Of a stretch of 64,000 nucleotides of DNA, positions 57,894-60,226 are shown in pieces. Within the stretch, counting starts at the first letter, position 1. Each line of letters opens with the position of its first letter. Where the stretch lies: contig NZ_QRDQ01000009.1 in NCBI RefSeq assembly GCF_003385895.1, positions 186,001 through 250,000 on the forward strand, read 5' to 3'. The position numbers and the translations under genes were made by a program. The notes beneath the pieces are model-generated. The model did not search any database. It was not told the DNA's origin and saw only the letters and a list, made by a program, of their open reading frames with translations. The DNA comes from Flavobacterium cutihirudinis. Its GTDB lineage: Bacteria; Bacteroidota; Bacteroidia; Flavobacteriales; Flavobacteriaceae.

Positions 57894-58187
57894 AAAAGTA
57901 GTTTTCAAATAATGCAAAGAAAATGTCTCAAATGACAGCTTCTTTGCATCATAAAATATTTATAAAATTTATTTTATCTGTAAAAACCCCATTGGGGTGA
58001 GATATTTATAGAATTACAACAAGACAAATAAAAAAAGCTCCGGAGGAGCGACATATCAAGCTGTAGAGAAAATATGTCGCTCCTCCGGAGCTTTATGTTG
58101 TAAACCTTTATAATTTGCTATAAATATTTCGCTTCTCCGAAGCTTGCAAAAAAGGAGTTATTCTTTTAAGACAATCTCTTTTTTATT
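57894..58187. repeat. Cluster of three hairpin-headed repeats
   Basis: This 294-bp gap holds three related units. Unit 1 (57986-58018): CCCCATTGGGGTGAGATATT, then TATAGAA. Unit 2: a perfect 23-bp inverted repeat, arms 58034-58056 and 58072-58094, starting AAAGCTCCGGAGGAGCG. Unit 3 (minus strand, about 58115-58150): AAGCTTCGGAGAAGCGAAAT followed by ATTTATAGCA. Each has a GC-rich head hairpin and an ATATTTATAGnA-type tail. No reading frame is visible. They lie between convergent genes (SMR exporter and propeller lipoprotein). Confidence 0.75.
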
Positions 58188-59228
58188 TTAAAAAGCTGTA
58201 AAAGTCTTCCCATCATAACGATACACACCATTCAGAGATCCAACCCAAATACTTCCATCTTTCGCTTCCAGAATTCCACAAAGCATTCCCATTCTTTTTA
58301 GTGATAATATTTCTGTAACCTTTGGATTTTTATCGTATAAAGATTCCTGATCATAACGGGAAAGCGCCCAATAGCCATTCGGTTTTACAGAACCCGTTGT
58401 CCAAATATTTCCTTTTTTATCTTGTAGCAAAATCGAAGTCCCTTTCTCTGATACTTTTGTATAGGTATTGCCATCATAACGCCAAAGACCAAATTCAAGA
58501 ACCAAAGTATCACCCTTCACGCCTCTTCTGTCTTTGAGTATGGAACCACCAAACCAAATATTGCCTTTTCTATCTTCGATTATACTCCAAACATTGTGAA
58601 AAGGTTTACCGCCTTTTTTTGGGAAAACGGTAAAAGTTTTTCCGTCATAGAAACAAGGTTCTTCTCTGGTGCCAAACCATACTTTTCCTGTGCTGTCTTC
58701 CATAATAGAAGTAACATCATTATTGGAAAGTCCGTCTTTAGTTGTAAAATTCCGAAAAGATTTTCCATCATAACGGCTTGCTCCACCGCCAGTAGCAAAC
58801 CAAATATTACCCGCCCTATCTTCATAAATAGATGCAACCCTATTACTCGCAAGTCCTTCGCGAGTTGTAAAATGCTGAAAAGTTTTTTTATTGTAATAAT
58901 AAACTCCCGAATCTTTAGAAGCGAACCAAAGATTTCCTTTTCGATCTTCCAGCACCTCCCAAAAGCTTGGTGATTTTATCTTACTTGTTAGATTGGTGAA
59001 CGATTTTCCATCGTATCGAAAAACGCCTTTGAAAGACGCAATCAGAATATTTCCTTTGCTATCTTGCTTTATATTTCTCACCATACCCATAGGTCCATAA
59101 GGTGAAACCGTGTCTTTGATTTTCGCGTTGCTAATTTCTATTTGTTGGTTTGTCTGATTCGAATCTTTACAAGAAATAAAAAAAACAAACATCAGAAACA
59201 AGGTGTAAAGTGGTGCGTATCGCTTCAT
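58188..59228 (-). CDS. Reg_prop beta-propeller lipoprotein
   Basis: A 346-residue lipoprotein with lipobox FFISC (Cys20). The mature part is about seven repeats of the two-component regulator propeller type, such as NRVASIYEDRAGNIWFATGG followed by SRYDGKSF. Reg_prop repeats usually form the periplasmic sensor of hybrid two-component systems, followed by a Y_Y_Y domain, kinase and regulator. Here none of these follow. It is divergent from a membrane-spanning winged-helix regulator, so it may be its sensory partner. The ligand is unknown, perhaps a glycan. Confidence 0.88.
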   Translation of the reverse strand: MKRYAPLYTLFLMFVFFISCKDSNQTNQQIEISNAKIKDTVSPYGPMGMVRNIKQDSKGNILIASFKGVFRYDGKSFTNLTSKIKSPSFWEVLEDRKGNLWFASKDSGVYYYNKKTFQHFTTREGLASNRVASIYEDRAGNIWFATGGGASRYDGKSFRNFTTKDGLSNNDVTSIMEDSTGKVWFGTREEPCFYDGKTFTVFPKKGGKPFHNVWSIIEDRKGNIWFGGSILKDRRGVKGDTLVLEFGLWRYDGNTYTKVSEKGTSILLQDKKGNIWTTGSVKPNGYWALSRYDQESLYDKNPKVTEILSLKRMGMLCGILEAKDGSIWVGSLNGVYRYDGKTFTAF

Positions 59229-59295
59229 ATTTTATTAATTTTCAAAGTTGTTTCAGCAAAATTACTTTGATCTTTTTCGATTGAAAGGATTTGAA

Positions 59296-59327
59296 TTGTA
59301 AATAAAATTGTAAACTTTGTAAATAAA
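59296..59327. promoter_or_regulatory. Direct repeats TTGTAAATAAA in the divergent regulator/propeller gap
   Basis: TTGTAAATAAA occurs at 59296-59306 and 59317-59327, exactly 21 bp (two helical turns) apart, with a partial copy TTGTAAAC at 59308-59315. The gap is 110 bp and lies between the propeller lipoprotein and the winged-helix regulator gene. The spacing fits tandem binding by OmpR-type winged helices. Confidence 0.55.
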
Positions 59328-59338
59328 CTATTGACACT

Positions 59339-60226
59339 ATGCTTTCTAGCCAAAATATTCTGCCAAAGAAATACAAATACCTGTTTGGATTGATAACACT
59401 CGTGTTTATCGCTTTAATCTGCGTAGCTTTCAATGGAAATGACAATGAAGATTTTGATAGTGCCAAAAGGGAAGTTTTGCTCCGAAGCATCGGACATGAA
59501 TTACTTTTACATTCTGGTGACAGTATATCAAGAGTTCTTCCTGTAAAAAAGATTGCTGAAAATGAATACGAAATCCAGTTTGAAAAGAATTTCTCTTTTC
59601 AACCGGAAGTTTTGGTTAAAACTGTCGGGAATTATTTGGCTAAAGACCCGCTCACAACAGATTATGTTGTTCGTGTTCTTAATTCAGGCAACGCCAAAGT
59701 AGTTTATGGATTCACCATATCCAAAAGTAAAAAAGATAACAATGTTCCTTGCGTAAGACGAATACAACCTAAAGCTAATTATAGCATCAACATTAAATTC
59801 AAACCATCAAATATAAGTGTTGCCCAAAACAAATATATTCTAGGAGGATTGCCGCTTTTAGTAGTTGTAGGTTTTGTTTTTTTTAAATCGGTTAAGTCAC
59901 GAAAACCGCTATCTGACGAGGAAAGTGATTTAATAGCATTAGGAAAAATACTGTTCGATGTAAAAAATCGAAAACTGATGATAGACGATAAAATAATAGA
60001 ACTAACAGGAACCGAATTGCGTCTACTGCATATTTTTTCCCTTTCTCCTAATAAAAATATAGAACGAAGCCGGCTTCAAAAAGAGATTTGGGAAGATGAA
60101 GGCATCATTGTCGGACGTAGTCTGGATATGTTTATCTCAAAACTTAGAAAAAAATTGGAAGTTGATCCTAACGTTAATATTGTTGTAGTGCGTAGTAAAG
60201 GATATAAACTTGAAATTAGCGCTTAG
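59339..60226 (+). CDS. Membrane-spanning winged-helix transcriptional regulator
   Basis: A 295-residue one-component regulator. It has a transmembrane segment at 15-31, a polar domain of about 135 residues (32-166) expected in the periplasm, and a second segment at 167-183. A cytoplasmic OmpR/PhoB-type winged helix follows at about 200-293 (LTGTELRLLHIFSLSPNKNI, LDMFISKLRKKL, VRSKGYKLE). The order is reversed relative to ToxR and CadC, where the DNA-binding domain is N-terminal. No kinase or receiver is present. It is divergent from the Reg_prop lipoprotein, with direct repeats between them. Confidence 0.88.
   Translation: MLSSQNILPKKYKYLFGLITLVFIALICVAFNGNDNEDFDSAKREVLLRSIGHELLLHSGDSISRVLPVKKIAENEYEIQFEKNFSFQPEVLVKTVGNYLAKDPLTTDYVVRVLNSGNAKVVYGFTISKSKKDNNVPCVRRIQPKANYSINIKFKPSNISVAQNKYILGGLPLLVVVGFVFFKSVKSRKPLSDEESDLIALGKILFDVKNRKLMIDDKIIELTGTELRLLHIFSLSPNKNIERSRLQKEIWEDEGIIVGRSLDMFISKLRKKLEVDPNVNIVVVRSKGYKLEISA

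What the first reader, a model, noticed from the sequence alone, without database searches (positions are those of the whole stretch)
58188..60226. Candidate split sensor: orphan Reg_prop lipoprotein facing a reversed ToxR-like winged-helix regulator
In Bacteroidota hybrid two-component systems, Reg_prop propellers sense glycans and are fused to Y_Y_Y, kinase and regulator domains. Here the propeller stands alone as a lipoprotein. It is divergent from a 295-residue regulator with two membrane segments, a periplasmic domain of about 135 residues and a C-terminal cytoplasmic winged helix (the reverse of ToxR order). The 110-bp gap carries TTGTAAATAAA repeats exactly 21 bp apart. A kinase-free sensor in which a propeller lipoprotein signals to a membrane-embedded DNA-binding protein would be a new arrangement. 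The domain architecture is seen; the partnership is inferred.
Basis: partly seen in the sequence, partly recalled or inferred. Interest (0 to 1): 0.62.

Follow-up and report, generated by a model that had tools for sequence, protein, structure and literature searches.

The report
Membrane regulator with swappable exported partners
A gene switch that sits in the inner membrane keeps its DNA site and its envelope-facing domain across many Bacteroidota, while the exported protein gene facing it is swapped among unrelated families; the sugar-sensor-like propeller seen here is one of several such cargos rather than a dedicated half of a sensor.

Summary
In detail: a 346-aa Reg_prop lipoprotein gene diverges from a 295-aa regulator (TM, periplasmic domain, TM, C-terminal OmpR/PhoB-type winged helix), with TTGTAAA repeats (three, not two) in the 110-bp gap. 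The divergent arrangement and repeats are strongly conserved; the propeller is not. Of 180 non-redundant regulator loci (best hits, not a random sample) 164 have a divergent gene. Its product falls into at least seven sequence families: an OB-like ~180-aa protein 59, YceI 24, Reg_prop propeller 21, a weakly TonB_C-like protein 19, 'c3' 12, BNR propeller 10, a ~190-aa family 6. Regulators 92% identical, with matching intergenic DNA and cargo leader, carry unrelated mature proteins. So the propeller is best read as exchangeable cargo and target gene, not a dedicated sensor half. The tandem operator is on the regulator's strand in 138 of 163 gaps (shuffles 4 of 3260). The periplasmic domain is related to that of a histidine kinase lying beside an RprY-like response regulator in the same genome, so the regulator looks like such a system without kinase and receiver. 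Cys138 is invariant (177 of 177), and several unrelated cargo families end in cysteine. There are no expression or binding data; regulation is inferred.

The parts
58188..59228 (-). Reg_prop beta-propeller, putative lipoprotein (346 aa); the exchangeable divergent cargo gene of this locus
   Evidence: sister loci L068 and L091 carry the same cargo
59169..59171 (-). Cys20 codon of the lipobox-like FISC
   Evidence: sequence; lipidation inferred
59257..59264 (-). TAATTTTG, matches the Bacteroidota -7 consensus TAnnTTTG (consensus recalled) on the propeller's strand
59296..59323 (+). Tandem operator: TTGTAAA at 59296, 59308 and 59317; near the regulator start codon and about 60 bp upstream of the inferred start of propeller transcription
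59339..60226 (+). Membrane-embedded one-component regulator (295 aa)
59366..59437 (+). Residues 10-33: predicted first membrane helix
59438..59815 (+). Residues 34-159: periplasmic sensor domain, related to that of the histidine kinase at G000:C3 near 764088
59750..59752 (+). Cys138, invariant in 177 of 177 regulators (mostly CxGR); partner positions 116 and 147 are Ser and Asn here
59816..59881 (+). Residues 160-181: predicted second membrane helix (low confidence in parts)
59924..60223 (+). Residues 196-295: C-terminal OmpR/PhoB-type winged helix with the RprY-like GRSLDxFISKLRKK motif

Best explanation
The regulator is a membrane-embedded one-component transcription factor: the periplasmic sensor domain of a histidine kinase joined through two membrane helices to the winged helix of an RprY-like response regulator, with no kinase and no receiver. 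It binds a tandem repeat of TGTAAA half-sites in the gap, activates the divergent gene for an exported protein (site about 60 bp upstream of the inferred start) and, because the same site lies just upstream of its own start codon, represses itself. The divergent gene is exchangeable; in this genome it is the Reg_prop propeller. Shown by sequence: domain order, conserved operator and its strand, conserved divergent exported gene, repeated change of cargo class, sensor homology to the kinase. Inferred: binding, direction of regulation, signal, and what the propeller does (most likely an envelope binding protein made on demand).
For: Domains and topology. Divergent gene in 164 of 180 loci, with a hydrophobic N-terminal stretch in 162 of 164 against 666 of 1338 other ORFs (loose heuristic). 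Operator on the regulator's strand in 138 of 163 gaps, on the other strand in 1 of 163, shuffles 4 of 3260; 17 of the 25 misses have a looser TG[TC][AC]AA tandem. Cargo exchange: at least 43 class changes on the tree for 153 labelled loci, shuffled labels 80-92; L101 (propeller) and L090 (YceI) have regulators 92% identical, gap 88 of 102 nt and first 84 nt of the cargo gene 69 of 84 identical, but unrelated mature proteins. Action in trans: where the small cargo is unlinked but the regulator is present, the repeats stand before it in 6 of 8 genomes (plus 1 degenerate); where no regulator was found, in 1 of 9 (plus 1 degenerate); Fisher p 0.015. Co-occurrence in the genus: both 36, small cargo only 9, regulator only 12, neither 192 of 249. 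Kinase origin: the sensor profile finds one other protein in the genome at E 1.3e-10, a kinase directly before an RprY-like regulator; hhalign 95%, E 2.8e-8.
Against: No expression, footprint or mutant data. Cargo class keeps phylogenetic signal (43 changes against 80-92 shuffled), so exchange is not free and some specificity is possible. In G214 and partly G164 the repeats stand before the small cargo although no regulator was found; G115 has the regulator but no repeats before its unlinked small cargo, and G141's are degenerate. 10 of 180 loci keep the regulator with no divergent gene. No second strong site was found in the own genome, so a wider regulon is unsupported here. The tree used FastTree with 68 of 174 inner branches under 80 support.
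Confidence: 0.72

Rival explanations
1. Split sensor as first proposed: the propeller lipoprotein binds a glycan and touches the regulator's periplasmic domain to switch it.
For: Propellers recur beside the regulator: first divergent gene in 21 of 164 loci, including deep branches L044, L052, L055-L057. In the window's closest relatives L068 and L091 the propeller (82%, 79% mature) is better conserved than the regulator (70%, 66%). Related propellers are the sensor part of hybrid kinases.
Against: The regulator is kept with at least six other cargo families and in 10 loci with none. Standalone propellers live without the regulator. At least 8 of 21 first-position propellers have no lipobox, so a common membrane anchor is missing. 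The regulator has its own kinase-type sensor.
Confidence: 0.12
2. Exchangeable feedback partner: whichever exported protein is encoded divergently reports back to the regulator (as ToxS or TcpH do), the periplasmic domain accepting several folds.
For: Divergent coupling is kept through cargo changes; the regulator has an invariant, apparently unpaired Cys138 and 59 of 59 small, 16 of 18 TonB_C-like, 10 of 10 BNR and 10 of 12 c3 first-position cargos end in Cys, against 7 of 1133 other ORFs.
Against: YceI (3 of 23), Reg_prop (2 of 21) and the ~190-aa family (0 of 6) lack it, this window's propeller included; the small cargo keeps it in the 9 genomes where no regulator was found.
Confidence: 0.15
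3. The repeats are only the core promoter of the regulator, or chance A+T-rich repeats.
For: They lie just upstream of the start codon; the region is A+T-rich.
Against: Spacing and strand are conserved where the rest varies; shuffles reach it in 4 of 3260; the same repeats stand before unlinked small-cargo genes in the matching orientation; no TAnnTTTG is found on that strand in the gap.
Confidence: 0.05

Closest known systems
ToxR/CadC-type membrane-embedded one-component regulators
   Same: OmpR-type winged helix tethered to the inner membrane with a periplasmic sensor; winged helix aligns with ToxR and CadC
   Different: Winged helix at the C-terminus after two membrane helices; sensor domain of kinase type; divergent exported cargo that is exchanged
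RprX/RprY-like two-component systems (own-genome pair at G000:C3 about 764070-766015)
   Same: Periplasmic sensor domain (E 1.3e-10; hhalign 95%) and winged-helix motif GRSLDVFIS(R/K)LRK; RprY is the best NCBIfam hit of both proteins, below its cut-off
   Different: No kinase, no receiver; sensor and winged helix are one polypeptide; Cys138/Cys147 region absent from the kinase (sequence)
Hybrid two-component systems with Reg_prop sensors (e.g. PDB 4a2l, 3v9f)
   Same: The propeller is of the same repeat family
   Different: Standalone single propeller; no Y_Y_Y, kinase or DNA-binding part in the protein
ToxR/ToxS-like co-component systems
   Same: Membrane regulator coded beside an envelope protein
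   Different: The neighbour is not one conserved family but at least seven, divergent rather than co-transcribed

Membership tests
OmpR/PhoB winged-helix regulators | Trans_reg_C winged helix | tested here: met
   PF00486 E 1.8e-15; VIA Z up to 13.5 for residues 197-294
OmpR/PhoB winged-helix regulators | Tandem direct-repeat binding sites about 10-11 bp apart | tested here: met
   Half-sites 9-12 bp apart, outer pair 21, in 138 of 163 gaps; binding itself not tested
ToxR/CadC family | N-terminal cytoplasmic winged helix followed by one TM and a periplasmic domain | tested here: not met
   Winged helix is C-terminal, residues 198-293
Two-component system (RprXY-like) | Histidine kinase and receiver domains | tested here: not met
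   No such Pfam hit in the 295-aa protein
Two-component system (RprXY-like) | Kinase-type periplasmic sensor domain | tested here: met
   Profile E 1.3e-10 and hhalign 95%, E 2.8e-8 to the own-genome kinase
Reg_prop hybrid two-component sensor | Reg_prop fused to Y_Y_Y, kinase and regulator | tested here: not met
   Only Reg_prop above its cut-off
Split sensor / co-component pair | One partner family constantly linked to the regulator | tested here: not met
   Reg_prop first in 21 of 164, anywhere in the run in 28 of 164
Split sensor / co-component pair | Physical contact of partner and regulator | not testable with these tools
   Only single-chain prediction was offered
Surface lipoproteins (lipoprotein export signal) | C-X-K-(D/E)2-X after the lipidated Cys (PMC5080379, passages seen) | tested here: inconclusive
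   Window has C-K-D-S-N: K at +2 and a single acidic residue

The most novel reading that the evidence does not exclude
The regulator reads its own exported cargo: the invariant free Cys138 forms a reversible disulfide with the C-terminal cysteine that several unrelated cargo families share, so the switch senses whether exported product has arrived in the periplasm or the thiol state there. Cargo can be exchanged as long as it carries the tail; loci such as this one, whose propeller has no tail, use only the built-in kinase-type sensor.
Probability: 0.15. Interest if true: 0.85.

Novelty: new variant of a known kind. Interest (0 to 1): 0.6.

Why it matters
It points to a widespread, apparently undescribed class of Bacteroidota switches that run straight from a kinase-type sensor to DNA without phosphorelay, and to a locus where one regulator and operator stay fixed while the exported product is exchanged. 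In the phylum sample 22 of 296 genomes had a match at E<=1e-45, in the window's family and in five other family codes. It makes testable how a two-component system can collapse into one protein and why unrelated exported proteins under one promoter share a C-terminal cysteine. My searches of the open-access library showed no paper on this family in their listings; that is not proof of absence.

Tried and rejected
PADLOC scan of the regulator and five cargo proteins: one weak hit for the regulator (Orf5, E 0.0043), none for the cargos, so no defence reading. Pfam on the sensor domain: only weak chance-level matches (Cep192_D4, E 0.0034, 2 of 16 members). Fold search with the regulator model listed only winged-helix matches, which fill the list, so the sensor's fold is barely tested. 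Fold search of the small cargo: none of 989 matches at E<=0.001; weak OB-like entries (RPA, PriB) among unrelated ones. First genome pattern had one base too many in the spacer and missed the window site; corrected.

Sequence search of the sensor against ORFs of fetched loci found nothing beyond regulators (best E 0.9). Only the own-genome profile search showed the kinase.

Idea that loss of the Cys116/Cys147 pair goes with propeller cargo: rejected. Pair present in 151, absent in 25, one discordant, of 177; absent in 4 of 21 propeller, 6 of 59 small, 3 of 10 BNR loci, and 7 of 14 loci with no called divergent gene (not corrected for relatedness). That the pair forms a disulfide is inferred from its joint gain and loss.

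Limits of the counts: the 180 loci are best hits of three searches, not a random draw; I took 60 loci out of about 107 long matches listed. 188 of 189 loci had a scorable regulator; 8 duplicates were dropped. BLAST clustering joined the small and propeller families in one cluster through truncated propeller pieces and the fused L055 protein, and I split them by motif. Eleven first-position genes fall in small or single-member clusters ('other' 10 and one 'c0?') and were left out of the tree labels, as were loci without a divergent gene. Percentages of 25-42 for mature cargo are global alignments of unrelated proteins; the 42 comes from a 92-aa piece at a contig end (L094). The promoter -7 consensus, the RprX/RprY background and the ToxR/ToxS comparison are recalled. 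Papers: PMC5080379 passages only; all others seen as search listings with abstract starts.

Full report
What is there. The propeller protein has Reg_prop repeats only; its closest solved relatives are the propellers of Bacteroides-type hybrid sensors. The regulator has one Trans_reg_C domain at its C-terminus and is modelled with a membrane helix, a mixed alpha/beta part and a second, poorly resolved membrane segment in front of it. The repeat is threefold: TTGTAAA at 59296, 59308 and 59317.

How conserved is the linkage. In 249 genomes of the genus the regulator was found in 48 (E<=1e-20) and the propeller in 5 (E<=1e-60). In the 30 best regulator loci the gene opposite is a ~180-aa exported protein in 27 and a Reg_prop propeller in 3, this window included; the outer pair of repeats stands in the gap in each. 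More distant regulators (33-48% identical) face propellers again in five genomes. With 80 loci from named Bacteroidota genomes (Flavobacterium, Mucilaginibacter, Pedobacter, Chitinophaga, Sphingobacterium, Chryseobacterium and others) and 60 from the family search, 180 non-redundant loci resulted; 164 have a divergent ORF close by.

What faces the regulator. First divergent gene: small OB-like 59, YceI 24, Reg_prop 21, 'c2' 19, 'c3' 12, BNR propeller 10, ~190-aa lipocalin-like (my label) 6, others 13. Pfam supports YceI, Reg_prop and BNR; c2 touches TonB_C weakly (E 0.031); the small, c3 and ~190-aa families have no convincing hit. Later genes of the run come partly from the same set, so a propeller lies somewhere in the run in 28 of 164. 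The class changes at least 43 times on the regulator tree for 153 labelled loci; shuffled labels give 80-92, so there is exchange but also inheritance. In several pairs a shared intergenic region and leader precede unrelated mature proteins: L101 (propeller) and L090 (YceI) have 92% identical regulators, 88 of 102 intergenic and 69 of 84 leader nucleotides identical. A leader of the MKNKRN type precedes small, propeller, YceI and ~190-aa cargos.

Operator. A TGTAAA tandem 9-12 or 20-22 bp apart is on the regulator's strand in 138 of 163 gaps, on the other strand in 1, in shuffles 4 of 3260. Of the 25 misses 17 have a looser TG[TC][AC]AA tandem; 7 of the other 8 are gaps under 60 bp. The own genome has no second strong site. 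In eight genus genomes with the regulator but an unlinked small cargo, six have the full repeats before that gene, one degenerate, one none; in nine with no regulator found, one full (G214), one degenerate (G164), seven none (Fisher p 0.015). The small cargo and the regulator co-occur: 36 both, 9 and 12 one only, of 249.

Origin of the regulator. A profile of its N-terminal part finds one other protein in this genome, E 1.3e-10: a 420-aa histidine kinase whose next gene is an RprY-like response regulator. hhalign gives 95% and E 2.8e-8 over residues 41-170. The winged helix shares the GRS(L/M)DVFI motif with such regulators. The simplest account is a fusion of both ends of such a system with loss of kinase and receiver; this is inference from homology.

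Cysteines. Cys138 is invariant in 177 of 177 regulators; 116 and 147 come and go together (151 with, 25 without, 1 discordant), this window lacking both. First-position cargos ending in Cys: small 59 of 59, c2 16 of 18, BNR 10 of 10, c3 10 of 12; YceI 3 of 23, Reg_prop 2 of 21, ~190-aa 0 of 6; other ORFs of the same loci 7 of 1133 (ORFs cut at a locus end left out). In the small family it is the only Cys of the mature part in 45 of 59. The small cargo keeps it where no regulator was found, so the tail need not serve the regulator.

Mechanism. In this window the propeller gene has a TAnnTTTG-type element at 59257-59264, and the operator lies about 60 bp upstream of the implied start, a usual place for an activator; it also abuts the regulator's own start. 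I therefore favour activation of the divergent gene with self-repression. The signal is unknown; the kinase-type domain suggests an envelope condition. The propeller's part in it is most likely that of a product.

Novelty. Membrane-tethered winged-helix regulators are known (ToxR, CadC); this one has the reverse order, a kinase-type sensor and exchangeable cargo. My searches of the paper library showed nothing on it in their listings. In a phylum sample 22 of 296 genomes had it at E<=1e-45.

Noticed in passing
Loci, e.g. L133:5277-5819, L105:4785-5897, L232, L207: Unrelated exported proteins under this promoter end in Cys, mostly Gly-Cys, far above other ORFs of the same loci (7 of 1133).
   Followed up: partly
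window 58037-58091: Near-perfect inverted repeat GCTCCGGAGGAGCGACATAT between the SMR-type gene and the propeller; eight hits (four hairpin pairs) in the genome with up to 2 mismatches, a REP-like element.
   Followed up: partly
L055:786-1940: A second propeller in the run carries the leader and linker of the small cargo family: a natural fusion of two cargo types.
   Followed up: partly
L045-L048, L059: A regulator branch sits downstream of a response regulator and a large symporter-like kinase gene, with no divergent cargo, while the small cargo lies elsewhere with the operator.
   Followed up: partly
L070:5853-6893 (G004) and L071:2993-4033 (G099): Propeller relatives in genomes where no regulator was found; the G004 copy has an internal stop.
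   Followed up: no
L082-L161: Regulators and small cargos are about equally similar within Flavobacterium and to other families (Mucilaginibacter, Chitinophaga, Pedobacter), which suggests horizontal transfer of the locus.
   Followed up: no
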